From Sulfurospirillum diekertiae (GTDB lineage: Bacteria > Campylobacterota > Campylobacteria > Campylobacterales > Sulfurospirillaceae), in NCBI RefSeq assembly GCF_011769985.2, contig NZ_CP039734.2, positions 2,666,001 to 2,730,000 of the forward strand: a stretch of 64,000 nt of DNA. The letters are read 5' to 3'. The notes under the pieces are model-generated. The model was given only the letters and a program-made list of their open reading frames with translations. It made no database searches and was not told the origin of the DNA. The position numbers were made by a program, and so were the translations under genes. Below are positions 1,499 to 63,283 of the stretch, in pieces. Position 1 is the stretch's first letter, and each line of letters begins with the position of its first letter.

Positions 1499-2272
1499 AT
1501 GACAAAATCGATTCATTTTTCGACCTATTCTAGCATCAAGATTGGTCCAACACTTGATGTTTTACTGCTTGATTCTATCACGCCACTTCCCAAAGCCTAT
1601 AAGCTTATTGGTGGCGCAAACAACCTTTTGGTAAGCCCTACCCCACCTCCCCTTGCGATGCTAGATAAATGCTTTGATTTTATTCGTTTGGAAGAAACTG
1701 TTTTACATGTAGGCGGCGCAACGCCCAGTGGTAAAATTCTCTCCTTTGCAAAAAAGCACGATCTTGCAGGTTTTGAGCTGATGCAAAAACTCCCAGGAAC
1801 ACTGGGTGGCATGATCGCAATGAATGCGGGACTGAAAGAGTGGGAAATTTTCAATGACCTCATCGCTATTCGAACCGAGCATGGCTGGATAGAAAAATCA
1901 AAGATAGAACACGGCTACCGCTTCGCGAAAATCAAAGGCATTGTGTATGAAGCCACCTTTACATGTAAAAGCGGTTTTGATGAAAATTTGCTGGCCATGT
2001 TTAAAAAAATGCGCGACAATCAACCTAAAGAGCCTAGTGCAGGAAGCTGTTTTAAAAACCCAGAAGGACACTTTGCGGGAAAGCTTATCGAAGAGGCGGG
2101 CTTTAAAGGTAAACGTGTTGGCAATATGATGTTTAGCAACGTTCACGCCAACTTCTTAGTCAATCTGGGAGATGGTACGTATGAGGAAGCTATCACACTC
2201 ATTACGGCGGTCAAAGAGGAAGTTTTCAAACGCTTTGGCGTGAAACTGGAAGAAGAGATCATTATTTTATAG
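1499..2272 (+). CDS. murB: UDP-N-acetylenolpyruvoylglucosamine reductase MurB
   Basis: MurB reduces UDP-GlcNAc-enolpyruvate to UDP-MurNAc with NADPH and FAD in peptidoglycan synthesis. The 257-residue protein shows the FAD-binding YKLIGGANNLLV stretch, the LPGTLGGMIAMNAG loop, the catalytic-serine region SAGSCFKNP and a C-terminal acid run LEEEI. It is short, as in other Campylobacterota, suggesting the type II form. The start directly abuts the fliQ stop. A TTTACATGTAAA palindrome at 1958-1969 encodes FTCK, and a one-mismatch copy at 1703-1712 encodes part of VLHV. Confidence 0.94.
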   Translation: MTKSIHFSTYSSIKIGPTLDVLLLDSITPLPKAYKLIGGANNLLVSPTPPPLAMLDKCFDFIRLEETVLHVGGATPSGKILSFAKKHDLAGFELMQKLPGTLGGMIAMNAGLKEWEIFNDLIAIRTEHGWIEKSKIEHGYRFAKIKGIVYEATFTCKSGFDENLLAMFKKMRDNQPKEPSAGSCFKNPEGHFAGKLIEEAGFKGKRVGNMMFSNVHANFLVNLGDGTYEEAITLITAVKEEVFKRFGVKLEEEIIIL

Positions 2273-2291
2273 CAACCAAAAAGGAATTTTC

Positions 2292-2987
2292 ATGCAAAAA
2301 ACAGCTTTAGTCACGGGTGGAAACAAAGGTATCGGTCTTGAAGTTACCAAAGCTTTTTTGGCGTTGGGCTACGATGTTATTGTCCTCGCGCGTGACTTTA
2401 AAAATTTTGAGCTATCAACACATCCAAAAATTAAAACCATCGCGTTTGATTTAGTGAAAGTCGATGCCATTCCTGCGCTGATTGCCTCACTTCCAGCAAT
2501 TGATATTCTTATTAACAACGCTGGCATTATGTACGCGATTCCTTATGCAAACTACAAAAACGATCAAATTAACACCATGCTTAAAATCAACCTTGAAGCA
2601 CCCGTGAAGCTCATTGAAGAGGTCGCCAAAACGATGCTTGAAAAAGGTGGTCGTATTGTCAACAATACCTCGATTGCGGGACAAATTGGGCATCCTGATA
2701 TTTGGTATGGTATCACAAAAGCAGGATTGATCAATGCCACCAAAAGCTTTTCAAAAATCTTTGAAGGCAAAATCATCATCAACGCCGTTGCCCCAAGCCC
2801 CGTTACAACAGATATGCTAAACACCATTCCTCAAGCACGCCAAGAAGCCTTTTTAAAATCCGTCATTTCCAAACGATTTGCCATGCCTGAAGAGATCGCC
2901 AAAACCATTGTTTGGCTCGCTACGGAGTCGCCAGAATACATCAATGGCACGGTCATTGACATTAACAACGGATCGTTTCCACGTTAA
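2292..2987 (+). CDS. Short-chain dehydrogenase/reductase (FabG-like)
   Basis: This 231-residue classical SDR has the cofactor loop TGGNKGIG at residues 8-15, the NNAGI motif, a catalytic Ser in NTSIAG and the YxxxK pair in WYGITKAG. The C-terminal INGTVIDINNGS is also typical. Such enzymes perform NAD(P)H-linked oxidoreduction of hydroxyl or keto groups; the substrate cannot be read from sequence. It follows murB by 19 bases on the same strand with an AAGGAATTTTC ribosome binding site, and converges with tsaD 4 bases downstream. A true FabG is usually near acp and fab genes, so this is more likely an accessory SDR. Confidence 0.85.
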   Translation: MQKTALVTGGNKGIGLEVTKAFLALGYDVIVLARDFKNFELSTHPKIKTIAFDLVKVDAIPALIASLPAIDILINNAGIMYAIPYANYKNDQINTMLKINLEAPVKLIEEVAKTMLEKGGRIVNNTSIAGQIGHPDIWYGITKAGLINATKSFSKIFEGKIIINAVAPSPVTTDMLNTIPQARQEAFLKSVISKRFAMPEEIAKTIVWLATESPEYINGTVIDINNGSFPR

Positions 2988-2991
2988 GATT

Positions 2992-3993
2992 TTAAAAGAA
3001 AATATCTTTCGATGTGCTACGTACTTTTAAATCAGTTATGCTTACAAAAGAGCCTTTAGCATAGGCTTCGAGGGCACAGCGTCCAATCATCGCGGCATTA
3101 TCGGAGCAAAATTCCATTTTCGCGGTATGAAGTGTCGCTTTTTTAGACATGCAAAATGCTTCGAGTTCGCCACGTAAATAGAGATTTGCACTCGCTCCAC
3201 CGACAACACCAAAATGTTCAACCGGACGCTCTTTATACGCTTTTTTGATCTTTTGCATGAGGTGCGCCACAGCCACACGTTGAAACGAAGCGCAAATATC
3301 GCAGATGGTCTGTTCATCCAAATTTTCCTGCGCCTCAACGCAGAGTCTTACTTGGTTTTTAAGACCCGAATAGCTAAAAGCTAGTAATGAAGTGGAGGTA
3401 CCTTGCAAAGGAATCGTAAAATCAAATCGTTTGGCATTGCCTTTTTTAGCATACGCCTCGATAAGCGCACCGGCAGGATAAGGAAGTCCCAACATTTTTC
3501 CTACCTTATCAAAACTCTCTCCAAAGCTGTCATCCATCGTCGTTGCAAGTAAGGTTATTTCCTCTAAACTCTTTACATGTAAAAGCTGAGTGTGCCCACC
3601 AGAGACCAATAAAACATCCATCGGAAAACGTATTTCATCTTCGATAAAAAGGGAGCAAATATGCCCTTTGAGATGATTAATACCAAGGAGTGGAAGATGA
3701 AGCGCAACGCTGAGTGCCTTTGCCATGCTAACACCTTCTACCAAGCTGACCGAAAGTCCTGGCTCATTCGTCACGGCAATTGCTTTGAGCTCCGCAAAAT
3801 AGGGCTTCGCCTCTTCAAGTATTTTAGGAAGAGTCACCGCATGAAGGCGCGCGGCAAGTTCAGGTACAACACCACCATACTGTGCATGTTCCGCATCTTG
3901 CGAAATTTTTTTATGGAAGAGCAGTTTTTTATCACTTAAACGCGTAATCGCAATAGAGCTATCGTCACAGCTACTTTCAATGCTTAAGATCAT
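2992..3993 (-). CDS. tsaD: tRNA N6-adenosine threonylcarbamoyltransferase TsaD
   Basis: TsaD transfers the threonylcarbamoyl group to A37 of tRNAs reading ANN codons. The 333-residue ASKHA-fold protein starts MILSIESSCDDSS, carries the metal-ligand histidines in NHLKGH (about H107 and H111), and has GGVVPELAAR, SGGHTQL and the late Asp in CSDNAAMIG. The length is normal. The gene abuts the upstream M15 peptidase gene without a gap. A perfect TTTACATGTAAA copy at 3572-3583 reads as LHVK in this frame. Confidence 0.95.
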   Translation of the reverse strand: MILSIESSCDDSSIAITRLSDKKLLFHKKISQDAEHAQYGGVVPELAARLHAVTLPKILEEAKPYFAELKAIAVTNEPGLSVSLVEGVSMAKALSVALHLPLLGINHLKGHICSLFIEDEIRFPMDVLLVSGGHTQLLHVKSLEEITLLATTMDDSFGESFDKVGKMLGLPYPAGALIEAYAKKGNAKRFDFTIPLQGTSTSLLAFSYSGLKNQVRLCVEAQENLDEQTICDICASFQRVAVAHLMQKIKKAYKERPVEHFGVVGGASANLYLRGELEAFCMSKKATLHTAKMEFCSDNAAMIGRCALEAYAKGSFVSITDLKVRSTSKDIFF

Positions 3994-7675: not shown

Positions 7676-8270
7676 TTATTTTATAGTTATTACTTTATCA
7701 AAAAATTCTAAAATTTTGCCTACCCTTGCCTGCCATAAACGTGAAAAAAGCATTTTTTCTTCCGCATTGAGTGTTTCAGTAAGTAACTTTTGCATCAAAG
7801 GTTGCATGAGCGGGTCAACCTCAATACAACTAGGATTATATGCAATATCCACAAATTCATCCGTATCCATCCGCTGTATTCTTACATGTAAAGGTATTTG
7901 AGCATTAAAAAACATCAAATCTGTGCGTTTGTGATGAGCCCCTAAACCTTTAAATCCCCAATGATCGGTTGCTCCTGTTATCAGGGAAAAGACATTCGCA
8001 ACGACACCTGTTGTTCCTTCTTTTTGCGCCTCTTTAAAGAAAAACTTTGATGCCACCTCGCTTGGGTATCGCGTTAGGATAAAGTGCTTTAAGCCCTTCT
8101 CTTACCATCAAATAAGCGCCTGCAATCGTTGGACAACTATGCCCTGCACTTTTGACAACATCTAAATAACTAAAAATAATTTCTCCCTTTTCAAAAGCAC
8201 CTAACACTTCCGAGAGAGGGTCATACAGTGTGATGGTTTCTATCGTATCAAAAAAAGTAGGGTATTTCAT
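7676..8270 (-). pseudogene. FmdE-family protein, interrupted by a one-base frameshift
   Basis: The ATG at 8268-8270 has a strong GAAGGAG ribosome binding site. The first part reads to GHSCPTIAGAYLMVREG and PKRGGIKVF, then hits TAA. The rest (FKEAQKEGTTGVVANVFSLITG and onward) continues in another frame. Removing one base from the run of five T (minus strand) at about 8035-8043 restores one 197-residue reading through the join. FmdE-family proteins carry the HSCP motif and often a C-terminal zinc region, with molybdenum enzyme associations; function here is unknown. It could be a sequencing error, a true mutation or programmed slippage. A TTACATGTAA copy lies at 7882-7891 (PLHVR). Confidence 0.8.
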
Positions 8271-8984: not shown

Positions 8985-9523
8985 CGCTCAATTGTTCCAT
9001 AATAGCGACTTCGCTCCAAATTTTCAACCCATTTATAATCTGGATCGTCCCCTATTTTTGCCCAGTAAAGCACGCCAGAATTGCGCCACGGGTCGATCAA
9101 AATACCCGTACGAAATGGCGCACCTTTCGCAACAACGACGACGGAATTGTGTTCATTAAATTCACCCTTGTTTGCCACACCCCAACGCAAATCAAAACTT
9201 TGGTATTTTAAACCTTTCAGATGGGTGATCATATCTTCACTCCACTGATAGCAAAGACCTCGATCTTTCAGCCCCGTATTAATCAAAAAATTATGAAACG
9301 TTGGTGGATAGACAAGCCCATAACGTTCCGCTAAAATTTGAGGGTACAGTAACGATTCATAGGCAAACATACGCGCTTCTTGGTAGTCAACATCGGGGCT
9401 TAACTGTGTCAGTTCTGTTGTGAGCGCGGAGACGTCACTTGGCATTACATGTAAAGAGTCTTGTTTGGCACTGCACCCACCTAAAAGAAGTGTAAACACG
9501 AGAAGAAAAAGAAACTGTTTCAT
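8981..9523 (-). CDS. Lipoprotein with a possible Cys-His-Asp (transglutaminase-like) triad
   Basis: The 180-residue protein begins MKQFLFLLVFTLLLGGCSA, a lipoprotein signal with cleavage before Cys17. Within the mature protein GLCYQW, EHNSVVV and LIDPWRNSG occur in the order and context of a Cys-His-Asp triad of papain/transglutaminase-like folds; that assignment is inference. It overlaps the upstream metallophosphoesterase gene by 4 bases (ATGA), so the two are coupled. The palindrome copy at 9445-9454 is read as SLHVM, close to the mature N-terminus. I recognise no named family. Confidence 0.7.
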   Translation of the reverse strand: MKQFLFLLVFTLLLGGCSAKQDSLHVMPSDVSALTTELTQLSPDVDYQEARMFAYESLLYPQILAERYGLVYPPTFHNFLINTGLKDRGLCYQWSEDMITHLKGLKYQSFDLRWGVANKGEFNEHNSVVVVAKGAPFRTGILIDPWRNSGVLYWAKIGDDPDYKWVENLERSRYYGTIER

Positions 9524-10644
9524 ACTTTTTTGACTTTAAGATTGATTTTGACGATTTCACTAGGCGCCATAATACGCACCGCTGGACCCCAAAAACCCGC
9601 ACCATTACTGACAAAGACTTGTGTGTGCTTTGAGTGCTGATACAGACCACTTAAATAAGGCTGATCAAGGAGTACCAAAAGACCAAAAGGAAAAATCTGT
9701 CCCCCGTGTGTGTGACCACTAAGAATCAGATCAATCTTTTCATCGGTCATCTCTTTGACAATTTTAGGTTGATGGGAGAGCAAAATTGTTGGCAATTCTG
9801 GCTTTACATGTAAAAGTGCACGCTTTAGATCAGGTGGCTCAAAATCAAAACGTTTGCCAGACATATCCATCACACCCGCAAGATTAATCGTATGATTGAT
9901 GACAATAGAACGGTTGGAAAGAACATGAACGCCCAAAGTGCGAACATACTCCATAATTTTATGAACCCCGTAAAAATACTCATGATTTCCCGGCACATAG
10001 TAAACACCCAAACGACTCTGAATGGCGCGCAAAGAGTCAAGTTTGTCACCAATTTGATTCACCGGCATGTCAATCAAATCACCGGTAATGACAACCATAT
10101 CCGCATCTAAAGCATTTACTTGCTTCACCACAGCATCCATAAACGATTTTCCAAGGGTTTTGCCGATGTGCACATCCGTAATCTGAACAATGCTGAGCTC
10201 TGATTCCAACCCATCAATAAAAACATCGACCTCTTTAATGCGCGGTGCTTTCATACCATTAAGAAAGCCTTTAGCAATGTACGAAAATGCCAAAATAAGC
10301 ATCGTAACATCAAATACCATTTTGATAAACAATCGTCTGGAATAATCATGTGGGATTTTGGCATAAGGAATATGAAAGAGATCGTAAAGTATCGCCACAC
10401 AAAACAGCATAAACGAGACACCGATCATCGCCGAGAAGAGTGTGTATAAAATGGGGTCAAGATTGTCCAAACGAAGGACTAAGAAGTAGCATATTTCGCA
10501 CAGGGTAATGGCGATCATCACCCATTTGATCACACCTTGAATCTTGAAAAACAGATCCAAGCGTTTGAGAAAACGCTTGTAACTGTAAAAATTAATAAGC
10601 GATAAAACTGCAATAGCCGCAAATGCGAACGAAAGACGAAACAT
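9520..10644 (-). CDS. Membrane-anchored metallophosphoesterase (YkuE/calcineurin-like)
   Basis: The 374-residue protein has about four to five hydrophobic segments in the first 145 residues, then a calcineurin-like phosphoesterase domain with all metal motifs: TDVHIG, VITGDLID, PGNHEYFYG, LLSHQP and LSGHTHGGQ. Related YkuE-type proteins act on phosphate esters at the membrane; the substrate is not evident. It shares an overlap with the downstream lipoprotein gene. The palindrome copy at 9804-9813 is read as LHVK. Confidence 0.88.
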   Translation of the reverse strand: MFRLSFAFAAIAVLSLINFYSYKRFLKRLDLFFKIQGVIKWVMIAITLCEICYFLVLRLDNLDPILYTLFSAMIGVSFMLFCVAILYDLFHIPYAKIPHDYSRRLFIKMVFDVTMLILAFSYIAKGFLNGMKAPRIKEVDVFIDGLESELSIVQITDVHIGKTLGKSFMDAVVKQVNALDADMVVITGDLIDMPVNQIGDKLDSLRAIQSRLGVYYVPGNHEYFYGVHKIMEYVRTLGVHVLSNRSIVINHTINLAGVMDMSGKRFDFEPPDLKRALLHVKPELPTILLSHQPKIVKEMTDEKIDLILSGHTHGGQIFPFGLLVLLDQPYLSGLYQHSKHTQVFVSNGAGFWGPAVRIMAPSEIVKINLKVKKV

Positions 10645-13290: not shown

Positions 13291-13592
13291 TTTGGGGCAA
13301 AGCCCGAAAAGCTACGCTGCACTGGGCACTAAAGCTTGCCTCGTACGAGGCAGAACTTATCTCTTATCCTCTTTACATGTAAAATATTTCACTCACATTT
13401 TAACATCTCTACGTTTGGGGCAAAGCCCGAAAAGCTACGCTGCACTGGGCACTAAAGCTTGCCTCGTACGAGGCAGAACTTATCTCTTATCCTCTTTACA
13501 TGTAAAAAGTCATTCACACTCATTTGTAACATCTCTATTTTTTGGGGAAAAGTCCGAGCAGAACGTATCTTCCAACCCTTTTACATGTAAAC
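13291..13592 (+). repeat. Structured intergenic repeat, island A (two full copies and one short copy)
   Basis: Two copies (13291-13384 and 13414-13507, period 123) share about 94 identical bases. Each begins with a GGGC-AAA-GCCC hairpin, has AAAGCT...AGCTT in the middle, a TGCCTC-GTAC-GAGGCA hairpin, and ends at TTTACATGTAAA. A third copy (13541-13592) lacks the middle but keeps GGGGAAAAGTCCGAG, CAGAACGTATCT and a terminal TTTACATGTAAA. The island fills the gap between dxr (stop at 13593) and uraA (start at 13260), antisense to both genes. A reading frame across it only translates the repeat. Confidence 0.85.
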
Positions 13593-16058: not shown

Positions 16059-17390
16059 CTCTTTGTAAATTTTTAAGGTTTGATACTCTTCATAAGCAAC
16101 ATTCGCTCCATCAAAGGGTTTGACGTTTTTACGTTTCGTATAATCGACCAAATAGCCACCTTTTTGAGCCATGCTAAACTCCACGCACAGTTTTGCGGCA
16201 AATATGAGAACAGATTCAGGAACGTTCTGTTTTTCGGTACAAATAATCACATGAGAGGAAGGCAAATCTTTTACATGTAACCATATATCGCTCTTTTTCG
16301 CTTCTTGTAAAAGTGCGATGTTTCCTTTTTCATTTTTACCAAGCAGTATGCGATAACCCTCTAACAAAAAAGTCTCATAAAGATTGCTCTCATCGCCTTT
16401 TTGCTTTGATTTGCGCTGTTTGGGCACTAAAATTTGTATCTCTTCAGGGTCATGCGCCGCATTAATCACACCTACCATTCGCTCCAAGAAGAGTCGTTTC
16501 TCGTCTAAGTTCTCTTTTTGGCGATGCACCGAGAGCGCTTTTTGGCGCAGTTTTTTTGACTTTTTAAAGAGCATATTCGCCGCCATTTGCGGTGTTTGTG
16601 CTTGAGGAAGGTTGATCGTCACTTCATTGCCTTCAAAATCCACCAGTGTCACCGCTTCTTGATACCCTTTGATCGTGTTGGTATGCAAATGCGCTAAAAC
16701 CAAGGTTGCCTCTTTTTGCGCCTCGTCACTTTTCACCATCAACTCTTCTTCATTCTCCAGGGCATCAATCGCCTGAACAAGCTTCGTGATCTTTTTTTCC
16801 ACCTGAGCAATTTTCTGTTTTTTGATCTCTTCAAGCTTTACATGTAAACGTTTTTCATACGAGGCTTTCAGATACTCTTCAATACTTCCACCCAGCTCAA
16901 ATGGCTTCTCTTTAAGCTCTTTAGGCGGTAATTTTTCCAGTATTTCACCCACCTTAACACTGCGAAAAGAGACACTGGCATCAATATGACGCATTGCCTC
17001 TAAAACCACCTCGTTTTCATCTAAGATAATCGCGTTGGTATTGCGCCCCGTGAACTCTAACTGTAACGTTGTACGCATCGCTTTATAACTCGAACTCGCC
17101 ATCACCCCAATGCGCCAAATACGATTCCCCTCTTCCACTTCCATGCACTCAATCTTCGCATTTGAAAATCGCTTGGCAATCAGAACATCAAAGGGTGCGG
17201 TGTAACGCTTGGCTTGTTTGAAATCCTCTTTAAAAAACATATACGAATCCCCACGCCCAAGGTCGACAAACAGCGGCTCTCCCACTTCAAAAATAATGCG
17301 TAAGACAGAGTCATCCACACGGTAAATCGAAGAAATTTTATGGTACTGCTTTAAATAGTCATTGATACAAACAAGTTCACTGTGTTTCAT
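16056..17390 (-). CDS. NFACT-domain RNA-binding protein (RqcH/FbpA-like)
   Basis: The 444-residue protein has an N-terminal NFACT-N-like region (MRTTLQLEFTGRNTNAIILDE), a charged coiled-coil around residues 180-300 and a C-terminal NFACT-R domain (DIWLHVKDLPSSHVII). Family members include RqcH, which tags stalled nascent chains on the 50S subunit; the length is shorter than the usual 550 or more residues, so it may be a reduced form. Two palindrome copies (16271-16280 and 16838-16847) read as LHVK, the first inside the conserved NFACT-R motif. The gene ends within repeat island B. Confidence 0.85.
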   Translation of the reverse strand: MKHSELVCINDYLKQYHKISSIYRVDDSVLRIIFEVGEPLFVDLGRGDSYMFFKEDFKQAKRYTAPFDVLIAKRFSNAKIECMEVEEGNRIWRIGVMASSSYKAMRTTLQLEFTGRNTNAIILDENEVVLEAMRHIDASVSFRSVKVGEILEKLPPKELKEKPFELGGSIEEYLKASYEKRLHVKLEEIKKQKIAQVEKKITKLVQAIDALENEEELMVKSDEAQKEATLVLAHLHTNTIKGYQEAVTLVDFEGNEVTINLPQAQTPQMAANMLFKKSKKLRQKALSVHRQKENLDEKRLFLERMVGVINAAHDPEEIQILVPKQRKSKQKGDESNLYETFLLEGYRILLGKNEKGNIALLQEAKKSDIWLHVKDLPSSHVIICTEKQNVPESVLIFAAKLCVEFSMAQKGGYLVDYTKRKNVKPFDGANVAYEEYQTLKIYKE

Positions 17391-20245: not shown

Positions 20246-20270
20246 TACAATAAAGCATTCTTACATGTAA
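20246..20270 (+). promoter_or_regulatory. Promoter -10 with downstream palindrome before the Crp/Fnr gene
   Basis: A TACAAT -10-like hexamer at 20246-20251 is followed by the palindrome TTACATGTAA at 20261-20270, near the expected transcription start and 9 bases before the ATG at 20280. The AAAGG overlapping its right edge probably serves as the ribosome binding site. The leuC leader has the same arrangement. Confidence 0.45.
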
Positions 20271-21300: not shown

Positions 21301-21359
21301 TTTCTTAAACCTTTTTTTGCTAAAATACCCCTATTTTACATGTAAACAAAAGGCATACC

Positions 21360-27905: not shown

Positions 27906-27940
27906 AAAGAAACTCCACCAAAACGATGTGGGGTTTCTTT
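27906..27940. terminator. Bidirectional terminator between pldA and the RRM gene
   Basis: AAAGAAACTCCAC (27906-27918) pairs with GTGGGGTTTCTTT (27928-27940) with one G-T wobble, giving a 13-bp stem and a 9-base loop. The stem is A-rich on one side and T-rich on the other, so it can act in both directions between convergent genes. A TTACATGTAA copy overlaps its right edge (27939-27948). Confidence 0.8.
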
Positions 27941-27951
27941 ACATGTAAGCG

Positions 27952-37857: not shown

Positions 37858-37888
37858 TAACACAGGCTATGCGAAAAAGAACAAGTCA

Positions 37889-38052: not shown

Positions 38053-39563
<1,511 letters not shown>

Positions 39564-40722: not shown

Positions 40723-40740
40723 ATTTACATGTAAAATATT

Positions 40741-47406: not shown

Positions 47407-47557
47407 GTTAACAGAATATCCACTCTTTTTTAAATAAATTATACTGCCTTCTCTTTTAAAAACGAGACCTTTACATGTAAAAAAATTTAACTATGAGCAA
47501 TGTAAGTTTAAGATAATTTTTTCTACAATAAATGATCATAAAAATAAAGGGGCAAAA

Positions 47558-50553: not shown

Positions 50554-52770
50554 ATGCGTAAAAGCCTACTTCAACTCCTTTTTAGCTTCATCGTTATGGC
50601 AGGGAGTGTTGTAGGCTATCTTTATGAAAGCTCCTTTTGGCTTCCTTTTGAGTATAAAATTAAAGATAGGATGCTGCAAAGTAGAGGTGAAATCACAGGC
50701 GATGAAAATATTGTGATTATAGACATCGACGAAAAGAGTCTCAAGGCATTGGGACAATGGCCTTGGAGTCGCGATAAAATAGCAAAACTTCTGCAAAATC
50801 TCTCCGATCTTGGCGTTGCCATTGTAGGACTCGACGTCGTTTTCGCCGAAGCCGATAGCAGCTCTCCTCAAAAAGTTTTAGCACAATTGGGATTGCCCCA
50901 TAAAGATGTACCTGATTACGATGCTATTTTTGCCGAAACGATTGCGCATACACCTACCGTTGTGGGCTATGTTTTTGCGCTCACACCTGACTCGATCCAA
51001 CCAGAAGGCAATCCAAAATCAGCGGCAATTCTTGTAGAGCAAAACCGCCCCAAACGCTCTTCTTTGATTAAGCCATACCGTGCCATTCTCAACATTCCTC
51101 AGATTCAAAAACAAGCTTACTCAAGTGGCTATTTCAACACGATTCCTGATAACGATGGCATCGTACGAAGTGTTCCGTTAGTGATGGAATATGATGGTGT
51201 TCTCTACCCCTCTTTGAGCCTAGAAATGGTACGCATTGCGCTTGGTGAAAAAAAAATCCACATTGTGTATGATGAAAATGGGCTGCGCCAAATTGAAATT
51301 GGTGAACATATTATTCCCACAGACTTTTTTGGACGCTTAATGGTGAACTATCGCGGAGGTCAAAACAGCTACCGCTATATTTCTGCCATTGATGTCTATA
51401 ACAATAGCGTTGATCCTTTACATGTAAAAGATAAAATAGCCCTTTTAGGCACTTCTGCAGCGGGTCTTTTGGATCTAAGAAGTACACCATTTGAAAGTGT
51501 CTACGCAGGGGTAGAGGTTCATGCCAATGCGATTGATAATATGCTCCATGAAGATTACATTTCACAACCTATTTGGGCGCGCGGTGTCGATCTACTCAGT
51601 ATCGTGATACTTTCAATCGTTACCTTGGTGGCGTTACTGGTTCCTAGTGCATTTTTTAGTTTTATCGCCCTTGTGATACTTAACCTCATCGTCGTCATCA
51701 CGCATTACTATTGCATGGTATATCAAGGTATTTTACTCAATACGATTTTGCCGCTATTTGCCATTAACATTCTCTTTATTGTGGGACAAGCCATGAACTA
51801 CTTTTTAGAAATTCGTCAAAAAGAGCTTATTAAACATAAATTTTCAAGTAAAGTCAGCCCTGCCGTTATGAACAATATTCTCTCTAGTGGAGATGATATT
51901 CTACAAGGTATCGAAAAAGAGATCACCATCTTTTTTTCCGATTTACGTAACTTTACAGGTATTTCAGAAGCAGCAGGTGAGCCAAAACATCTTATTCATC
52001 TGATGAATGCCTATATGGATCCCATGAGTCAAATTATCATTCACCAAGGAGGCACAGTCGATAAATTTATCGGCGATGCGATTATGGCGTATTGGAATGC
52101 ACCTATTAGCACCCCTAATCATGCGGATAAAGCTGTCACTGCTGCACTCCAACAACTTCATCATCTCAAGGCACTCAATGCCACTATTCGTACCAATCCA
52201 GAGTTTGAAACCATTACGGCTATGGCAGATCAAAAAGGAGTGCCTATTATCGACATTGGTATTGGTATCAATACAGGTGTTGCCATTGTTGGGGAGATGG
52301 GAACAAGCAATAGAAGTGATTATACGGTCATTGGCGATCCCATTAACCTAGGCTCAAGGCTTGAATCATTATGCAAATACTATCATTCGCACCTCACTAT
52401 TTCCCATTTCACCAAAAATAAACTCAAAGGTGCTTACCTCTTTCGCTTCTTAGATTTAGTAACCGTTAAAGGCAAACATGAACCTATAGAAGTATGGCAA
52501 ATCCATGATTTTGATACACTCCAAACCGAGCCGCTTTACGCAACATCGTATGAAGAGCTCCAAGAGGAATTACGTTTACACCACGAAGCCATTGAACTTT
52601 ATAGAAAAGCTGATTTTACCGAAGCACTCAAATGTTTTGAAGCATTGAATCGAAGAGAAAATAAAACCAATGAGGCAATCTATCCTCTGTATATTGAACG
52701 CTGTTTGCACTATATCGCGTTTCCACCTTCTTCATTTAATGGTGTTTTTGTACACACCACCAAAGGATAA
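50554..52770 (+). CDS. CHASE2-domain class III nucleotide cyclase
   Basis: The 738-residue protein has one N-terminal helix, a periplasmic CHASE2 sensor (residues about 26-340, with DIDEKSLKALGQWPWSR), two to three membrane helices near 345-420, and a class III cyclase domain. The metal aspartates are in FFSDLRNFT (about 459) and KFIGDAIMAYW (about 503); the transition-state N and R are in INLGSRLE. The Lys before IGD suggests ATP as substrate. A TPR-like tail follows. The next gene begins two bases after the stop. Palindrome at 51418-51427 (LHVK). Confidence 0.9.
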   Translation: MRKSLLQLLFSFIVMAGSVVGYLYESSFWLPFEYKIKDRMLQSRGEITGDENIVIIDIDEKSLKALGQWPWSRDKIAKLLQNLSDLGVAIVGLDVVFAEADSSSPQKVLAQLGLPHKDVPDYDAIFAETIAHTPTVVGYVFALTPDSIQPEGNPKSAAILVEQNRPKRSSLIKPYRAILNIPQIQKQAYSSGYFNTIPDNDGIVRSVPLVMEYDGVLYPSLSLEMVRIALGEKKIHIVYDENGLRQIEIGEHIIPTDFFGRLMVNYRGGQNSYRYISAIDVYNNSVDPLHVKDKIALLGTSAAGLLDLRSTPFESVYAGVEVHANAIDNMLHEDYISQPIWARGVDLLSIVILSIVTLVALLVPSAFFSFIALVILNLIVVITHYYCMVYQGILLNTILPLFAINILFIVGQAMNYFLEIRQKELIKHKFSSKVSPAVMNNILSSGDDILQGIEKEITIFFSDLRNFTGISEAAGEPKHLIHLMNAYMDPMSQIIIHQGGTVDKFIGDAIMAYWNAPISTPNHADKAVTAALQQLHHLKALNATIRTNPEFETITAMADQKGVPIIDIGIGINTGVAIVGEMGTSNRSDYTVIGDPINLGSRLESLCKYYHSHLTISHFTKNKLKGAYLFRFLDLVTVKGKHEPIEVWQIHDFDTLQTEPLYATSYEELQEELRLHHEAIELYRKADFTEALKCFEALNRRENKTNEAIYPLYIERCLHYIAFPPSSFNGVFVHTTKG

Positions 52771-52772: not shown

Positions 52773-55172
52773 ATGAGTTTAATTCACATTCTAGGTGCAA
52801 ACGGTAGTAGATCTAAACAAAGTTTTACAACCTGTATCCAAGTCACGCCCAATACAATCATTGATGCTGGCAATATTATGTATGCTCTAGGCACTGAAGC
52901 GTTACATGTAAACCGTATTTTTTTCTCACATGCACACCTCGATCACATTATAGACAGTGCTTTTCTTATTGATAATTTTTTTACACAACGCAAAGAGACA
53001 CTCTACCTCTATGGACTTCCCCAAACCATTAAAGCTATCAAAAAACATCTTTTTAATGATATGGTCTGGCCAGATTTTAGTAAAATCAATCTAACACATT
53101 GTGAATGTCCTGCTATCACCTATATTGAGATAGAGCCCTATAAACGTTATTTCATTGAAGAGAACATTACACTCACTCCCATTCCAGCCAATCATGCCGT
53201 ACCCTGTTGTGGTTATATCATTGAGCAACAAGGAAGCAGCATACTCTTTTCAGGCGACACTTTTCATAATGAAGCGCTTTGGAACATCCTTAACGAAAAC
53301 CTTTCCATCAAAGCACTGATCATCGATGTCTCATTTCCCAATCAGCTCTCTCATGTCGCAGCTGAAAGCAAACATCTCACACCTCATTTTCTTCAAGAGG
53401 GATTAATAAAACTGCTTAAACGTGATGACCTCCATCTCTACATTAACCATCTCAAGCCTTTCTACGCAGACCTGATTGTCAAAGAATTGGAAGATATGGG
53501 CATTGCAAAAAAATCCATTTTGTGTGATGGAGAAAAAATAGATATCGCCACTGGTTTACTACACCAAATGATGTCTAGCCATACCAATGATGAACGTGTT
53601 CAAAAATTAACGCAAATTGGAACCGCTCTCTCTGCCAATGAAAGCCTTGAAAATCTTTTAGAAATGATTGTCACGGAAGCCAAAAATCTTACCAATGCCG
53701 ATGGAGGAACACTTTATTTATTAGAAAAAAATGAACTTCGTTTTAAAGTCATCCAAACGGACTCTTTAAAGATTAAGATGGGCGGTACAAGTGGAAAGAT
53801 CACATGGGCACCTTTGCCACTCTACCTTGAAGATGGAACGCCCAATAAAGCGATGGTGGCAGCGACCTGTGTCTTAGAAGATCGCCTTGTTAATATTCCC
53901 GATGTTTATGAAGCAGTGGGATTTTCCTTTGAAGGAACCAAAAAGTTTGATCAAGGAACAGGTTATCGCTCAAAATCCATGCTAGTTATTCCTCTCAAAA
54001 ACCATGAATACGAAATTATAGGTGTGTTGCAACTGCTTAACAAGCAAAATGATTATAAACAAGAAGTCATCCCTTTTAACAATGAAGATGAAAAAATTAC
54101 TTTATCGCTCGCTTCACAAGCGGCAATCGCTATTACTAATACCTCGCTCATTCAAGGGCTTGAAAATCTTTTAGAAGGCTTCCTTAAAAGTATCATTTTT
54201 ACAATCAGCAAAAAATCACCTTATACTGCTGGGCACATCAAACGTATGGTCAAACTCAGTGTCATGCTTGCCGAAGCAATCAATCGCGATACAATCACAT
54301 ACGCCCATAAGCATTTTAATACCGAAGAGATCAAACAGATCAATTTTGCGGCCTTAATGCATGACATTGGAAAACTGGCTTCACCCGAACACATCCTCAA
54401 TAAATCAACCAAATTGGAAGCATTATGTGACCGTATTGTGCTCATTGAGAGTCGTATTCAAACGATTGAAAAAGCTTTACATGTAAAACTTCTAGAAGAC
54501 AAAATTGCTCTTTTAGAAGGTAAACAAATAGGTGATGTAACAACTTTAGAAAAAACATACGAACAGCAGATCAAAACACTCCGTGAAATCTTTTTACTTC
54601 TCCAATCAAGTAACAATGGAGAACAGTTTCTCAGTGATGAGAAAGCTGCAAATATTAAAGCTATCGCTGAGCATCCATGGCATATTGGGAATGAAATCTA
54701 TACAATTTTAACACCTGATGAAGCACATCATTTGAGCATACAAAAAGGAACGCTAACCTCAGAAGAGCGTGAAATAATTAACAATCACGCGAAGCTCAGT
54801 ATTGATATTCTAAACCGCCTTCCCTTCCCTAAAAAATACCAACAAATTCCGCAGATTTCAGGGAATCACCATGAAAAGCTCAATGGAAAAGGTTATCCTC
54901 AAGGACTTAAAGGGGATGAAATTAGCTTTGAAGCACGTATTTTAGCCATTGCTGATATTTTTGAAGCCTTAACAGCAAGTGATCGTCCTTATAAGGCGGG
55001 TATGCCCCTCTCCACGGTTATGAAAATTCTTTATACCATGGCACAAGCAGGTGAATTGGACAAAGAGTTGGTCAAGTTTCTCTATACATCAAACATCTAT
55101 CTTGAATATGCAAAAGCTTTTTTACCCGAACGTTGCATTGATGAAATTACGGTCGATTTTAACATGTTATAA
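52773..55172 (+). CDS. Class II PDE (MBL fold)-GAF-HD-GYP fusion
   Basis: The 799-residue cytosolic protein has an MBL domain (residues 1-265) with SHAHLDH (H53, H55, D57, H58), NHAVPCCG (H141), SGDT and INHLKP (H226). The GLPQTIKAIKKHLFND and VWPDFSK elements match class II cyclic-nucleotide phosphodiesterases. A GAF domain follows (about 280-445), then HD (LMHDIGK, about 527), a helical insert, and GYP in HHEKLNGKGYP (about 699). So it may hydrolyse both cAMP and c-di-GMP. Palindromes at 52902-52911 (LHVN) and 54477-54486 (LHVK). Confidence 0.85.
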   Translation: MSLIHILGANGSRSKQSFTTCIQVTPNTIIDAGNIMYALGTEALHVNRIFFSHAHLDHIIDSAFLIDNFFTQRKETLYLYGLPQTIKAIKKHLFNDMVWPDFSKINLTHCECPAITYIEIEPYKRYFIEENITLTPIPANHAVPCCGYIIEQQGSSILFSGDTFHNEALWNILNENLSIKALIIDVSFPNQLSHVAAESKHLTPHFLQEGLIKLLKRDDLHLYINHLKPFYADLIVKELEDMGIAKKSILCDGEKIDIATGLLHQMMSSHTNDERVQKLTQIGTALSANESLENLLEMIVTEAKNLTNADGGTLYLLEKNELRFKVIQTDSLKIKMGGTSGKITWAPLPLYLEDGTPNKAMVAATCVLEDRLVNIPDVYEAVGFSFEGTKKFDQGTGYRSKSMLVIPLKNHEYEIIGVLQLLNKQNDYKQEVIPFNNEDEKITLSLASQAAIAITNTSLIQGLENLLEGFLKSIIFTISKKSPYTAGHIKRMVKLSVMLAEAINRDTITYAHKHFNTEEIKQINFAALMHDIGKLASPEHILNKSTKLEALCDRIVLIESRIQTIEKALHVKLLEDKIALLEGKQIGDVTTLEKTYEQQIKTLREIFLLLQSSNNGEQFLSDEKAANIKAIAEHPWHIGNEIYTILTPDEAHHLSIQKGTLTSEEREIINNHAKLSIDILNRLPFPKKYQQIPQISGNHHEKLNGKGYPQGLKGDEISFEARILAIADIFEALTASDRPYKAGMPLSTVMKILYTMAQAGELDKELVKFLYTSNIYLEYAKAFLPERCIDEITVDFNML

Positions 55173-55602: not shown

Positions 55603-56559
55603 ATGAAATCCTTTTGGCTTGTATTATGTTTGAGTGTCATGGTATGGGCAGATGCCCATATCTTTATCTACCATCGTTTTAACGATTCAAGATATCCCTC
55701 AACCAATACAACACTTGAAGAACTTCGCAAAGAGTTTGACTACTTTAAAAAAAATGGCTACGAAGTCATTCCCCTTGAAAAACTAGTCCAAGCACTTCAC
55801 AACAAAGAGACAATTCCAGATAATTGGATTGTTCTCACCGTTGATGATAACTATAAAAGCTTTTACGAACATGGCCTAGCACTCTTTAAAGAGTACCACT
55901 ACCCCTTCACCATGTTCGTCTATGTTGGAGCAACGGAGCAAAAATACGGTGATTTTATGAGTTGGGACCAACTGAAAGAGACAGCCAAATATGGCTCTTT
56001 AGAGTTTCATTCTCTCAACCACCCCCATATGACAGAACTAAGTAATGAAGCACTTAAAAAAGACTTTGATGAGGGATTAGCCCTTTTTGAAAAGCATCTT
56101 GGTCTAAAGCCTCATTATTTTTCTTATCCTTTTGGCGAATTTAGCCCTCGAGTAAAAGCCATTGCACAAAGCTATGGTTTTGAAGCTATTTTAAACCAAA
56201 CTATGGGTGCTGTTGCAAGTTTCAGCGATCCGCTTGATTTAGACCGCTCCGCACTGGTTGGCAAAAGCGATTTAACTGGATTTTTAAAATATAAAGCCCT
56301 TGAAGCCACCTGGTTTGAACCTACGGTATTGCTCAGTGATGGCAAACTTGGCGCTTTACATGTAAAAGCACAAACCACTTCGACTAAGGGCGGTATTTAC
56401 ATTAGCGAACATGGATATCAAGAAGTGAGTCTCAGTGATGGTGTGTTTGAAGCACAAATCAATAAAATACTCACCAAAGATCGCACACGGATCATCGTCT
56501 CTGTGGGCAATAAAATTTCAACGAAACTACTTGTAAAGGATAAATATGGAACTCAATAA
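55603..56559 (+). CDS. Exported polysaccharide deacetylase (NodB domain)
   Basis: The 318-residue protein has a Sec signal (cleaved after VWADA) and NodB motifs: TVDDNYKS (aspartate pair), HSLNHPHM (metal histidines) and SYPFGEFS. NodB-type enzymes remove acetyl groups from cell-wall or capsular sugars. A beta-domain of about 90 residues follows. The 3' end overlaps frr by 14 bases. A palindrome copy at 56356-56365 reads ALHVK. Confidence 0.86.
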
Positions 56560-58191: not shown

Positions 58192-59279
58192 TCTTTTTTA
58201 AAATCTCTGGTTTTTTCTTTTCGTACTTTTCTGTCACCAGTGTGTATGTTATTTTTATGCCAAAAATCTTGCAAACGATCGGATACAGTGCACTTCAAAT
58301 TGGCGCTATTTTTGCCTTAGCCCCTTTGATGCGTTTTTTTGTACCCTTTTTCTTCCTCAAACATTTTGAGCTCAACCAAAAAGTCTTTTACACAGCCCTT
58401 AGTGGCGCTATCCTTTCCATTATACTCTTCTACCCAACCATTCACCATTTCTACCTCTTTATGCTTCCTAATATGCTTTTAGGAGCCTGTTTGGGTATGA
58501 TATTGCCGTACATTGAAACCTATGCGATGGAACACTTGCGTAAAGAGCATTTTGGGAAATCACGTTTGTTTGGCTCAATTGGTTTTATGCTCATTGGCAT
58601 TGTCTTGGCACGCCACTTGGAAAACTACACCAATGGCTTACATTACCTACTTTTAGCCATTAGTGCAACGGCTTTGTTTGCCTATTGGCTCACCCAAAAT
58701 AATGCACATTTTACAACAGCGAATGCCACGATAGAAGAGCCTTTTAACTTTTTACATGTAAAGTATTTATGGATCAGTCTTTTCTTGATGCAAGTCAGTT
58801 TTGGGGGTTTTTATAACTTTTTTACCATTTATGAAACGGCACATGGTATCAGCCTTGAAATGACCAGTTATTTGTGGGCATTTGGTGTTATTTGTGAAAT
58901 TATACTGTTCTATTTTCAAGCACCTCTATTGAAACGCTTTAGCCTTTTAACCTTGGTAAAACTAGGAGTTTTGACAACAGCACTTCGCTGGTTGTTACTG
59001 TTTGCCTTTCCATCATCCCTTTGGATCTCATACCTGTCGCAATCCATGCATGCTTTTAGCTTTGCACTGCATCACACCGCAGCTCTGAGCCTTCTTTACA
59101 CACTTTATACTCATAAAAAACTAGCCGCTCAATTTTACTATGGATTTTCCTTTGGTTTAGGAGGGTTTGTTGGGGCTCTACTTGCAGGATATTTTTACGG
59201 TGAGTATCTTTACTTGTATGCAAGCTTCATCGCACTGCTTTCACTAGGAAGCTTAATGCTTTTCAAGGAGAAAGAATAA
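58188..59279 (+). CDS. Major-facilitator transporter (MFS_1-like)
   Basis: The 363-residue protein has eleven to twelve hydrophobic segments and the MFS_1-like motif GKSRLFGSIGFMLIGIVLA with GALLAGYFYGEYLY near the end. Substrate is unknown. It is coupled to the RDD gene. Its 3' end overlaps the convergent FliL-like gene by 17 bases. Palindrome copy at 58752-58761 reads LHVK. Confidence 0.82.
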   Translation: MIFFKISGFFFSYFSVTSVYVIFMPKILQTIGYSALQIGAIFALAPLMRFFVPFFFLKHFELNQKVFYTALSGAILSIILFYPTIHHFYLFMLPNMLLGACLGMILPYIETYAMEHLRKEHFGKSRLFGSIGFMLIGIVLARHLENYTNGLHYLLLAISATALFAYWLTQNNAHFTTANATIEEPFNFLHVKYLWISLFLMQVSFGGFYNFFTIYETAHGISLEMTSYLWAFGVICEIILFYFQAPLLKRFSLLTLVKLGVLTTALRWLLLFAFPSSLWISYLSQSMHAFSFALHHTAALSLLYTLYTHKKLAAQFYYGFSFGLGGFVGALLAGYFYGEYLYLYASFIALLSLGSLMLFKEKE

Positions 59280-60694: not shown

Positions 60695-61252
60695 CTATTT
60701 TTGAAAAAGGTTTTTCACATCAACATTTTGGCGTTCCATCACTGGAATACTAAAAACCTCTTTTCGCTTTAACTTCATAAAACCTGCCATAAAATTAGTA
60801 GGGAACATTTGAATGGCATTGTTATAGTCCGTTACACTTTGATTGTATGCTCTACGTGCCGCTGAAATCTGCTCTTCCAATTCATTCAGTGTACCTTGAA
60901 GGTGTAAAAAATTTTCATTCGCTTTAAGTGTAGGGTAGTTTTCAACAGCGACCATGAGATTGCCAAGCATGGAAGAGAGTTGTTTATCGAGGGCTACTGT
61001 TTCAGCATCTGTCAGAGTATTTGTTGTGGCTTTTGAGCGAAGTTCGGTGATCTTCTCAAGTGTAATGCGTTCATGAACCATATACTCTTTCACAGTTGCC
61101 ACAAGGTTTGGGAGAAGATCGTAACGTTTTTTGAGGATCGCATCAAGTCCTGCGAAGATATTATCGACTTGATTTCGTTTGGAGATTAGCGTATTGTACA
61201 TGACAATAATGATAAAAATGATGACACCTGTAACAATTAAAAATGTTTCCAC
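60695..61252 (-). CDS. lemA: LemA family protein
   Basis: Starts at the GTG at 61252 (185 residues) because GAGGAGGTTACT lies directly upstream. It has one N-terminal helix and the LemA motif YNTLISKRNQVDNIFAGLD, with AENYPTLKANENF-like (here VENYPTLKANENFLHLQGTL) near the middle. LemA proteins are membrane-anchored coiled-coil proteins of unknown role, often next to DUF3137. Confidence 0.93.
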   Translation of the reverse strand: METFLIVTGVIIFIIIVMYNTLISKRNQVDNIFAGLDAILKKRYDLLPNLVATVKEYMVHERITLEKITELRSKATTNTLTDAETVALDKQLSSMLGNLMVAVENYPTLKANENFLHLQGTLNELEEQISAARRAYNQSVTDYNNAIQMFPTNFMAGFMKLKRKEVFSIPVMERQNVDVKNLFQK

Positions 61253-61329
61253 AGTAACCTCCTCAATTATTATCACACAATAGGATTTTGCCATCATATG
61301 GGTGGCAAAATCTTTACATGTAAAACTTC

Positions 61330-63129
61330 TTAGCGGCTCATACGTTTACGTAGGTTTGGATCTAGGTATTTTTTACGAATACGAATGTTGATAGGTGTTA
61401 CCTCTACCAATTCATCATTTTCAATCCACTCAAGTGCTAATTCAAGGTTCATTTTGCGTGGTGGAACGAGTTTAATCGCTTCATCAGCACCACTACTTCT
61501 TACGTTACTTTGTGGCTTACCTTTGATAGGATTGACATCCAAATCGTTCGGACGTGAATGCTCCCCAATAATCATACCCGCATAAACTTTATACTGTACA
61601 TCCACGAAAAGAACACCACGCTCTTGCAAACTAAAGAGTGAATAGCCCATCGCAGTTCCATTCTCCATGGAAATAAGCGCACCATTTTTACGGTGTTCAA
61701 CTTCGCCACTGAGTGGTCTAAAATCAAGGAATGAGTGGTTCATAACACCCTCACCTTTGGTATCGGTCAAAAACTGTCCACGAAAACCTATAAGTCCACG
61801 TGCAGGAATTTCAAACTCAATTCTCGTTTGACCATCTCCCGTTGGGTTCATCGCTTTCATTTCCGCTTTTTTACGACCCAATTTTTCAATTACCGTACCT
61901 GTAAAATCATCGGGAACATCGATCACCAAATGCTCATATGGCTCCATTTTAACGCCATTTTCTTCTTTAATAATAACTTCGGGACGTCCAAGAGAGAACT
62001 CAAAACCTTCACGCCTCATATTCTCTGCCAAAATCGTAATTTGAAGCTCACCACGTCCACTTACTTTAAATTTACCTTCGCCTGCATTCTCATAACGCAT
62101 TGCAATGTTGGTTTTCATCTCAGATTCTAAACGCTCAGCAATTTTGTTGGAAGTAACGTATTTACCATCAAGTCCAGCAAAAGGAGAGTCATTAACACCA
62201 AAAACAACGGAGAGCGTAGGCTCTTCAATGTGCAATGGATCAAGAGGTATTGGATTGTTTGGATCAACGATACTATCGCCCACATCGAGTGTTTCAAAGC
62301 CAGCAATGGCTACGATATCTCCACTTTCTGCTTCGGCGATGTCGATTCTATCCAATCCATGGAAACCAATCAATTTAGAGATACGTCCACGAATTTGTTC
62401 GCCATCTGCTTTGGCAAGCAATACCGTTTCATTTTTCTTAATCGTTCCATTGAAAATACGTGCAATACCAATTTTACCAACATAGTTGTCATAATCAAGG
62501 GTAAACACTTGAAGCTGAAGAGGGTTTTCTGGTGAGCCAGTCGGAACTGGAACATGCTTAAGAATCGTTTCAAAAAGAGGCACAAGATTTTTACTTTCGT
62601 CACTCATGTTGTATTTAGCAAAACCATCGCGTGCTGCTGCATAAATGATAGGGAATTCAAGTTGATCTTCATTCGCACCAAGAGCCACTAAAAGGTCAAA
62701 TACCTCATCAACAACACGATCAGGATCAGCAGCTGGTTTGTCGATTTTATTGACAACCACAATCGGACACAGACCAAGACTCAATGCTTTTTTAACAACG
62801 AATTTGGTTTGAGGCATAACACCTTCTTGGGCATCGACAAGCAATAAAACACCATCAACCATTTTTAAAACACGCTCAACCTCGCCACCAAAGTCAGCAT
62901 GGCCTGGAGTATCGATAATGTTAATTTTAGTATCTTTATAGCGAATAGCTGTATTTTTAGAAAGGATGGTGATACCACGTTCTTTTTCTAGATCGTTGCT
63001 ATCCATCGCTCTTTCTTCTACTTTTTGATGTGCTGAATACGTTCCTGATTGTTTTAACAGCTCATCAACTAAGGTCGTTTTTCCGTGGTCAACGTGCGCG
63101 ATCACGGCAATATTTCTAAACTCTTGCAA
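61330..63129 (-). CDS. typA: Ribosome-associated GTPase TypA/BipA
   Basis: The 599-residue protein has [15 protein letters not shown] (Walker A), [23 protein letters not shown] and domain II, with the C-terminal [18 protein letters not shown] segment specific to TypA. It is a translation-factor-like GTPase that helps ribosome assembly at low temperature or under stress. The palindrome copy at 61314-61323 lies just after its stop. Confidence 0.97.
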
Positions 63130-63283
63130 AAAATTCTCCTCGTAAACTTTGACTTTTACATCTCATATAAAACGTACGTGATTGGTGTAGTTTGATGAAG
63201 TAAATATGCTTCATTATAGCACGTTCTTACTAAAATTAAAATATCCTTACATGTAAAGCTATTTGAGCGTTCATTTTTTAAAA

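What the first reader, a model, noticed from the sequence alone, without database searches (positions are those of the whole stretch)
1959..63256. A highly iterated palindrome, TTACATGTAA, shared by unrelated genes and spacers
I count 30 exact copies in 64 kb by eye. By base composition (about 0.3 A or T, 0.2 G or C) I estimate 0.17 expected, so the excess is over 100-fold. Eighteen are inside genes of different families. A palindrome reads the same on both strands, so only three frames matter: TTT ACA TGT AAA (FTCK-like, 7 genic copies), TTA CAT GTA (LHV-like, 11 genic copies), and the third gives TAA and is never used in genes. The conserved unit is therefore DNA, not protein. It resembles HIP1 of cyanobacteria or DNA-uptake sequences in its iteration, but I know of no description for this motif in Campylobacterota. 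Possible roles: DNA uptake, a site for an abundant DNA-binding or methyltransferase protein, or chromosome organisation.
Basis: partly seen in the sequence, partly recalled or inferred. Interest (0 to 1): 0.88.

Follow-up and report, generated by a model that had tools for sequence, protein, structure and literature searches.

The report
CATG-centred iterated palindrome, methyltransferase-linked
A ten-letter DNA palindrome occurs over a thousand times in this bacterium, is guarded letter by letter even where it changes proteins, and mostly rises and falls with a solitary enzyme that probably methylates its centre, so it may be a mark by which the cells recognise their own kind of DNA.

Summary
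The constraint is on DNA: synonymous-codon shuffles give 9.0 genic copies against 104, and at 80-90% local identity 212 of 223 aligned sites are perfect, against 23-34% of other 10-mers. The genus is Sulfurospirillum-like; species differ. Of the four protein families searched, the best correlate is an orphan D12 adenine methyltransferase of the NlaIII/HpyI (CATG) type: 15 of 15 genus genomes with it have 362-520 copies/Mb, and two nested species without it have 19 and 85. Distant Campylobacterales with related enzymes carry another CATG-core palindrome, TATCATGATA (1549 and 1009 copies). Exceptions exist: G171, G318, G360, G078, G257, G125 and G299 keep the motif without a detected enzyme, and many genomes have the enzyme but neither palindrome. 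It works like the HIP sequences of cyanobacteria, with a new sequence, lineage and methyltransferase. Most likely it is a methylated self-recognition mark, by analogy with CtsM-dependent DNA uptake; that function is inferred, not shown.

The parts
1959..1968 (.). TTACATGTAA, genic
3573..3582 (.). TTACATGTAA, genic
7882..7891 (.). TTACATGTAA, genic
9445..9454 (.). TTACATGTAA, genic
9804..9813 (.). TTACATGTAA, genic
13373..13382 (.). TTACATGTAA, intergenic, in a 123-bp tandem duplication
13496..13505 (.). TTACATGTAA, intergenic, second copy of the same duplication
13581..13590 (.). TTACATGTAA, intergenic
16271..16280 (.). TTACATGTAA, genic
16838..16847 (.). TTACATGTAA, genic
18596..18605 (.). 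TTACATGTAA, genic
19679..19688 (.). TTACATGTAA, genic
20261..20270 (.). TTACATGTAA, intergenic
21336..21345 (.). TTACATGTAA, intergenic
23249..23258 (.). TTACATGTAA, genic
24209..24218 (.). TTACATGTAA, genic
27939..27948 (.). TTACATGTAA, intergenic
30511..30520 (.). TTACATGTAA, between convergent genes
30531..30540 (.). TTACATGTAA, between convergent genes
40725..40734 (.). TTACATGTAA, between convergent genes
46898..46907 (.). TTACATGTAA, genic
47024..47033 (.). TTACATGTAA, genic
47471..47480 (.). TTACATGTAA, between divergent genes
51418..51427 (.). TTACATGTAA, genic
52902..52911 (.). TTACATGTAA, genic
54477..54486 (.). TTACATGTAA, genic
56356..56365 (.). TTACATGTAA, genic
58752..58761 (.). 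TTACATGTAA, genic
61314..61323 (.). TTACATGTAA, intergenic
63247..63256 (.). TTACATGTAA, intergenic

Best explanation
TTACATGTAA (extended CTTTACATGTAAAG) is a highly iterated palindrome held in place across the chromosome as DNA. Shown: over-representation, DNA-level constraint, site-by-site conservation, lineage-specific variants that keep the CATG core. Shown as a correlation with exceptions: its abundance follows an orphan D12 adenine methyltransferase of the NlaIII/HpyI (CATG) type, encoded about 183 kb before the window start (G000:C1:2481820-2482794, minus strand). Inferred: that enzyme methylates the central CATG, and the methylated palindrome is read by another protein whose flank preference sets the local variant. 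Most likely reader (inferred): the DNA-uptake machinery, so that cells take up or recombine DNA of their own kind, as Campylobacter does with CtsM-methylated RAATTY. Uptake bias then enriches the palindrome and restores mutated copies; when the methyltransferase is lost, the sites decay.
For: Abundance: 1220 copies, 8 of the control. Constraint. Methyltransferase: 15 of 15 genus genomes with type A have 362-520 copies/Mb; the 9 others have 19-467. G065 (19/Mb) and G104 (85/Mb) group with type-A genome G149 (support 100/99) inside the type-A part of the tree and lack the gene at its conserved locus. G104 and G231 show one-off words above chance at several motif positions, as decay would. Outside the family 10 of 12 palindrome-rich genomes have the enzyme against 63 of 342 others. 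A second CATG-core palindrome, TATCATGATA, reaches 1549 and 1009 copies in two genomes that both have the enzyme. CATG specificity of the enzyme family: in Helicobacter magdeburgensis a homologue (52% identical) starts one base after an ICEA-family endonuclease gene, and CATG is absent from that 21-kb locus, 0 against 76 expected; over 72 loci with homologues the median CATG observed/expected is 0.42, and 16 have an ICEA relative. No ICEA relative in 18 loci of the enzyme from the window's family. The uptake channel ComEC is present in 41 of 44 family genomes and T2SSE ATPases in 21 of 21 genomes tested.
Against: G171 keeps 934 copies with no sign of decay, but no D12 gene was found in it, and in its sister G318 (86% complete) no enzyme of this family; none of G171's contig ends shows the gene or its close neighbours. 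G360 (608), G078 (567), G257 (265), G125 (340) and G299 (194) also lack a detected enzyme (E 1e-20). Many genomes have the enzyme and neither palindrome: 63 outside the family by my thresholds, and six of ten in genus g2 (6-97 copies of TTACATGTAA). ComEC and T2SSE do not discriminate rich from poor genomes. No receptor, methylome or uptake assay was seen. Known uptake sequences of other bacteria are not palindromes (recalled). The specificity of the window genome's own enzyme is inferred from homologues at 52-53% identity. Only four protein families were tested as correlates.
Confidence: 0.45

Rival explanations
1. A chromosome-organising or replication-linked DNA-binding protein binds the symmetrical 10-14 bp site genome-wide; the methyltransferase only modulates or marks the site, in the way SeqA and Dam sites work (analogy recalled).
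For: The site is long, sharp and symmetrical; no spaced version is enriched. G171 keeps the motif without a detected methyltransferase. The 18 chromosomal stretches of 20 kb hold 2-12 copies each with no obvious trend.
Against: Spacing of the first 100 copies is random, CV 1.01. Two close relatives have lost most of it, and relatives change flanks while keeping CATG, which is odd for an essential architecture. No candidate protein was identified.
Confidence: 0.22
2. Methylation-biased repair creates and restores the palindrome as a by-product, as Elhai proposed for HIP1; it has no function of its own.
For: One-off variants cluster at the outermost position (23 of 45, 6.0 expected there), as in HIP1 (PMC4390886 section 2.6). 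Variant sequences share the core of a methyltransferase.
Against: The motif overrides protein sequence (LHV 90 against 20.9) and single sites persist at 95% over 10-20% divergence, which needs very strong bias. Campylobacterota lack classical MutS/MutL mismatch repair (recalled, not tested). G171 shows undiminished maintenance without a detected enzyme.
Confidence: 0.2
3. It is the operator of a global transcription factor.
For: Palindromic, 12-14 bp, and 4.9 times denser between genes than within.
Against: 104 of 173 copies are genic; convergent intergenic spacers hold 16 in 2,946 bp while divergent, promoter-bearing spacers hold 13 in 15,643 bp; over a thousand sites, randomly spaced where examined.
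Confidence: 0.03
4. Codon usage, base composition or a small mobile repeat explains the excess.
For: Two of 30 window copies do lie in a tandem duplication.
Against: Synonymous shuffles give 9.0 against 104; flanks of the copies are unrelated apart from that duplication; where a relative lacks a copy, 19 of 23 aligned places differ by substitutions and 4 by gaps.
Confidence: 0.01

Closest known systems
HIP1 and alternate HIPs of cyanobacteria (PMC4390886: abstract, section 2.6 and parts 1-2 of 3 of the Discussion read)
   Same: Palindrome iterated through genes and spacers; associated orphan methyltransferases for the core; one-off variants at the outer positions; relatives with replaced sequences and matching methyltransferases; some rich genomes without the expected methyltransferase.
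   Different: Core CATG instead of GATC/CGATCG; 80% A+T instead of G+C-rich; about 360-520 per Mb instead of 1000-2000; Campylobacterota, not cyanobacteria; an NlaIII/HpyI-type enzyme.
CtsM-dependent DNA uptake of Campylobacter jejuni (passages in PMC8468864, PMC8627207, PMC4687069)
   Same: A solitary adenine methyltransferase whose palindromic mark is needed for DNA uptake, in the same phylum.
   Different: CtsM marks RAATTY, which is simply common in those genomes (28,407 of 28,482 sites methylated in one C. coli); here a long word has become iterated. The methyltransferase is a different subfamily. 45 of 46 genomes of family f11 have a match at E 1e-20, mostly about 33% identical where shown; that f11 is Campylobacter and these proteins CtsM is my inference from size and distribution.
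DNA uptake sequences of Neisseriaceae and Pasteurellaceae (recalled; search listing only)
   Same: About one copy per 1-3 kb, dialects among relatives, conservation in place.
   Different: Those are not palindromes and not known to be methylated; no uptake data here; no receptor identified.
NlaIII / HpyI (IceA1) CATG restriction-modification systems (passages in PMC3261200, PMC4687069)
   Same: The methyltransferase belongs to the same D12 family as one that sits beside an ICEA-family endonuclease.
   Different: No ICEA relative at 18 loci of the window's family; CATG is not avoided (1870 against 1583 expected).

Membership tests
Highly iterated palindromes (HIP class, PMC4390886) | Perfect palindrome massively over-represented across genes and spacers | tested here: met
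   1220 copies, control 8; 104 genic and 69 non-genic in 452 kb
Highly iterated palindromes (HIP class, PMC4390886) | Genome carries a methyltransferase for part of the sequence | tested here: inconclusive
   Family enzyme in 15 of 24 genus genomes (type A) plus 2 (type B); G171, G318, G360 rich without one found
Highly iterated palindromes (HIP class, PMC4390886) | G+C-rich and 1000-2000 per Mb (described as general in cyanobacteria) | tested here: not met
   20% G+C; 362-520 per Mb in type-A genomes; hence a variant kind, not a cyanobacterial HIP
DNA uptake sequence | Preferential uptake of DNA bearing the motif | not testable with these tools
   Needs transformation assays
DNA uptake sequence | Host has transformation machinery | tested here: met
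   ComEC in 41 of 44 genomes, T2SSE in 21 of 21; also in motif-poor genomes
DNA uptake sequence | Recognised by a dedicated receptor | not tested
   No receptor sought beyond the two families
CtsM-type methylation-dependent uptake | Solitary D12 methyltransferase conserved in the species group | tested here: met
   No relative of ICEA or of the Capnocytophaga neighbour protein at 18 loci; same neighbours in the three type-A loci viewed
CtsM-type methylation-dependent uptake | Target RAATTY / orthology with CtsM | tested here: not met
   Closest relatives outside type A are the CATG type at 45-57%; the 33% subfamily is separate
NlaIII/HpyI CATG methyltransferase | MethyltransfD12 domain with DPPY | tested here: met
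   PF02086 E 4.2e-47; LDPPYN invariant in A1, 8 sequences
NlaIII/HpyI CATG methyltransferase | Specificity CATG | tested here: inconclusive
   Homologue beside ICEA with 0 CATG in 21 kb; median CATG observed/expected 0.42 over 72 loci; own enzyme not assayed
Type II restriction-modification system | Cognate endonuclease and site avoidance | tested here: not met
   No ICEA relative found at 18 loci or in the own stretches; other endonuclease types were not sought; CATG 1870 against 1583

The most novel reading that the evidence does not exclude
Campylobacterota use methylated CATG-centred palindromes as DNA-uptake signals: a solitary CATG methyltransferase writes the mark, a receptor reads mark plus flanks, and lineages speak dialects (TTACATGTAA in Sulfurospirillum-like species, TATCATGATA elsewhere). 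It would join HIP sequences, CtsM-type uptake and uptake-sequence dialects into one phenomenon.
Probability: 0.35. Interest if true: 0.93.

Novelty: new variant of a known kind. Interest (0 to 1): 0.82.

Why it matters
The purpose of highly iterated palindromes has been open since HIP1. Here is a second, independent case in another phylum with useful contrasts: close relatives that lack both the putative methyltransferase and most of the motif, relatives with exchanged flanks, genomes with the motif but no detected enzyme, and, in the same phylum, a genus in which methylation-dependent DNA uptake is already an established assay. That makes the question directly testable. It also shows a DNA word so strongly kept that it writes amino acids into roughly a hundred places in a sixth of the genome (excess of LHV and TCK/TCN over shuffled proteins).

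Tried and rejected
Codon choice: rejected by synonymous shuffles. Spaced palindromes: only the zero-spacer form is enriched. Regular spacing: not seen, CV 1.01 over the first 100 of 1220 copies. N6_N4_Mtase (PF01555) as correlate: no pattern in 44 genomes, absent from the window genome. ComEC and T2SSE as correlates: in 41 of 44 and 21 of 21 genomes, so uninformative. TGACATGTCA as a replacement word: only a minor form, 30 in G138, 15 in G276, at most 4 elsewhere in 44 genomes. Solved structures: no sequence relative of the methyltransferase. Assembly gap as the reason for G171: not supported, since neither the gene nor its close neighbours was seen at any end of its 13 contigs (only distant paralogues matched); the interior of the contigs was not fetched whole, though searched the whole genome.

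Weak points of my own statistics: one search counts ordered pairs of species in both directions, so its sites are not independent; the tests ignore phylogeny and use thresholds I chose after seeing the counts (30 copies of TTACATGTAA, 60 of TATCATGATA, E 1e-60); copies per Mb use rounded genome sizes, and some genomes are incomplete; the label 'own 450kb' is wrong, it held 387,849 bases without the window; gene calls are my own codon-score calls. G042 (L130) and G020 (L083), which led to TATCATGATA, were looked at because they carry the methyltransferase; G141, G206 and G251 were not so chosen. What label 'RE' includes relatives of a 286-residue protein beside the Capnocytophaga methyltransferase that matches no Pfam or NCBIfam family and is not shown to be an endonuclease; one search separates the two (16 ICEA, 5 of the other). 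One search's 19 loci include one, L084, that holds an unrelated D12 protein, leaving 18. One search stopped with an error after six of seven loci; I used its printed part.
Full report
CHECK. The window holds 30 exact copies of TTACATGTAA; dinucleotide shuffles give 0.14 on average and never more than 3. The whole genome (2,777,717 bases: one contig of 2,737,849 and one of 39,868, probably a plasmid) holds 1220, against 8 of the reversed word. I took 20 further stretches, which with the window make 451,849 bases and 173 copies. Around the ten bases the consensus extends to CTTTACATGTAAAG; 38 copies are perfect over 14.

WHERE IT SITS. Of 173 copies 104 are genic (0.26/kb) and 69 not (1.27/kb). 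Convergent spacers hold 16 in 2,946 bases and divergent ones 13 in 15,643, so it does not seek promoters. Genic frames: 68 LHV, 30 xTC, 6 ending the gene as YM-stop. Spacing of the first 100 copies is random. The 10-kb stretch of the window without the motif contains an rRNA operon. The 39.9-kb contig has 4 copies.

IT IS DNA THAT IS KEPT. Shuffling synonymous codons within 442 genes gives 9.0 genic copies (sd 2.6, largest 15 in 100 shuffles) against 104; LHV occurs 90 times against 20.9 in shuffled proteins, 77 of them as TTACATGTA; LHVK 42 against 1.6. One-mismatch words total 45 against 35 expected, and the excess is at the outermost position (23 against 6.0); at positions 2-5 they are at or below chance. 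In 14 orthologous sequences from 11 genus genomes, at 80-85% and 85-90% local identity 94 of 99 and 118 of 124 aligned sites are perfect, against 22.6% and 34.2% of other 10-mers and 86 of 194 and 78 of 136 control palindromic 8-mers; at 75-80% it is 28 of 39, at 70-75% 56 of 90 and at 65-70% 0 of 5 (ordered pairs, not independent). Against the motif-poor relative G065 0 of 12 aligned sites are kept, and residues inside seven genic sites are 13 of 24 identical while their flanks are 109 of 140 (small sample; for motif-rich G160 18 of 21 and 100 of 120).

DISTRIBUTION. In 398 genomes of the order the genus has 49-1496 copies; other genera of the family 6-733; one other family (f17) has eight genomes with 31-367; all remaining genomes have at most 19. 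A draw of 298 genomes from the phylum, which all turned out to be of the same order, shows nothing outside these two families above 9. G180 of f17 has the same methyltransferase at the same contig coordinates as a record named Sulfurimonas sp. RIFOXYD12.

THE METHYLTRANSFERASE. A scan of 44 family genomes for MethyltransfD12 led to a 325-residue protein at G000:C1:2481820-2482794, between a small hypothetical gene and a cheY-like gene. It forms one clade (type A, 14 sequences in the tree, support 100/99). All 15 genus genomes with type A (G378 in two pieces) have 362-520 copies/Mb; the nine without have 19-467 (Mann-Whitney p 3e-4). In a BipA tree G065 (19/Mb) and G104 (85/Mb) form a group with type-A genome G149 (406/Mb; support 100/99). 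At the conserved locus the gene is absent in G065, G104, G231 and G330, and in G138 and G276, which carry a different (type B) enzyme about 18-25 kb away. G138 has a relaxed motif (T2>G 23 copies against 0.6), while G104 and G231 have one-off words above chance at several positions, as expected of decay; G171 has them at position 1 only, like the window genome.

WHY CATG. Relatives at 50-57% identity are widespread (80 of 526 kept). In Helicobacter magdeburgensis the gene starts one base after a protein matching Pfam ICEA (E 1.9e-121), and CATG is missing from the 21-kb locus, 0 against 76; in a Capnocytophaga locus it is 0 against 75. IceA1 is an NlaIII-like endonuclease and hpyIM a CATG methyltransferase (passages in PMC3261200, whose text prints CTAG but whose cited title says CATG, and PMC4687069). 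Of 72 loci examined (of 80; 8 under 9 kb left out) 16 have an ICEA relative and 5 a relative of the unidentified Capnocytophaga neighbour; the median CATG observed/expected is 0.42. None of the nine loci with the strongest CATG-core 8-mer has either, nor do 18 loci of the enzyme from the window's family.

DIALECTS. Locus L130 (the same contig as in G042) holds TATCATGATA 17 times in 21 kb against 0.1, and L124 TTCATGAA 7 against 0.4. Across 398 genomes TATCATGATA reaches 1549 in G042, 1009 in G141, 166 in G020, 88 in G206, 66 in G251 and at most 49 elsewhere; all five have the enzyme. In G020, a member of the window's own family, TCATGA is at 92 against 26.6 and ACATGT at 8 against 26.6. Outside the family, 12 genomes pass my thresholds for either word; 10 have the enzyme, against 63 of 342 others (p 4e-6); in f17 alone 6 of 8 against 4 of 37 (p 6e-4).

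AGAINST THE LINK. G171, G318, G360 (genus), G078 (g3), G257 (g5), G125 and G299 (f17) have the motif without a detected enzyme; G318 and G360 are 86% and 77% complete, the others 99% or more. G231 and G330 also lack it and still have 412 and 168 copies, far above chance. In g2 seven of ten genomes have the enzyme, and six of these have few copies of either word. So the enzyme is neither shown necessary nor sufficient. HIP1 has the same kind of exception (PMC4390886).

MECHANISM. A palindrome whose centre is the probable target of a solitary methyltransferase, kept site by site, with flanks that differ by lineage, asks for a reader. C. [quoted passage not shown]), so a reader of methylated palindromes exists in this phylum. 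I therefore favour a methylated self-recognition or uptake mark; a nucleoid-type binder and a repair by-product remain open. None of these was tested.

VERDICT. Real, very strong, DNA-level, and in no paper that my searches surfaced. A new variant of the iterated-palindrome kind.

Noticed in passing
window 13291-13507: A 94-bp unit is repeated exactly with a period of 123 bp in the spacer before the DXP reductoisomerase gene; each unit carries one motif copy and a TGCCTCGTACGAGGCA palindrome.
   Followed up: partly
window 34294-39562: rRNA operon (5S, 23S, two tRNAs, 16S, minus strand) inside the longest motif-free stretch of the window.
   Followed up: yes
L028:1692-2729 (second contig of the window's genome): A second, divergent D12 methyltransferase (54% identical to the chromosomal one) whose C-terminus departs from its relatives, possibly frameshifted.
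   Followed up: partly
L158 (Helicobacteraceae MAG TD114a_bin11): GCGATCGC, the cyanobacterial HIP1 word itself, 10 times in 19.6 kb against 0.2 expected; CGCGCG is enriched too.
   Followed up: no
L180:10001-11005 and L149:10001-10999: The CATG-type methyltransferases of Sulfurospirillum sp. Kmv13 and Sulfurimonas sp. KA11 are nearly identical (tree distance about 0.016) across families, suggesting recent transfer; L149 also has a weak (26%) ICEA-like match beside it.
   Followed up: no
L314-L317 (G020): ACATGT is depleted (8 against 26.6 in 80 kb) where TCATGA is enriched (92 against 26.6): one CATG-core word seems to replace another.
   Followed up: partly
L018 (G000:C1:1350001-1370000): Low-G+C stretch (32%) with only 2 motif copies, perhaps an acquired island.
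   Followed up: no
G289 and G349 (genus g78): The control word ATAGTACTAT occurs 20 times in each genome, more than TATCATGATA there (6 and 10); another iterated palindrome may exist.
   Followed up: no
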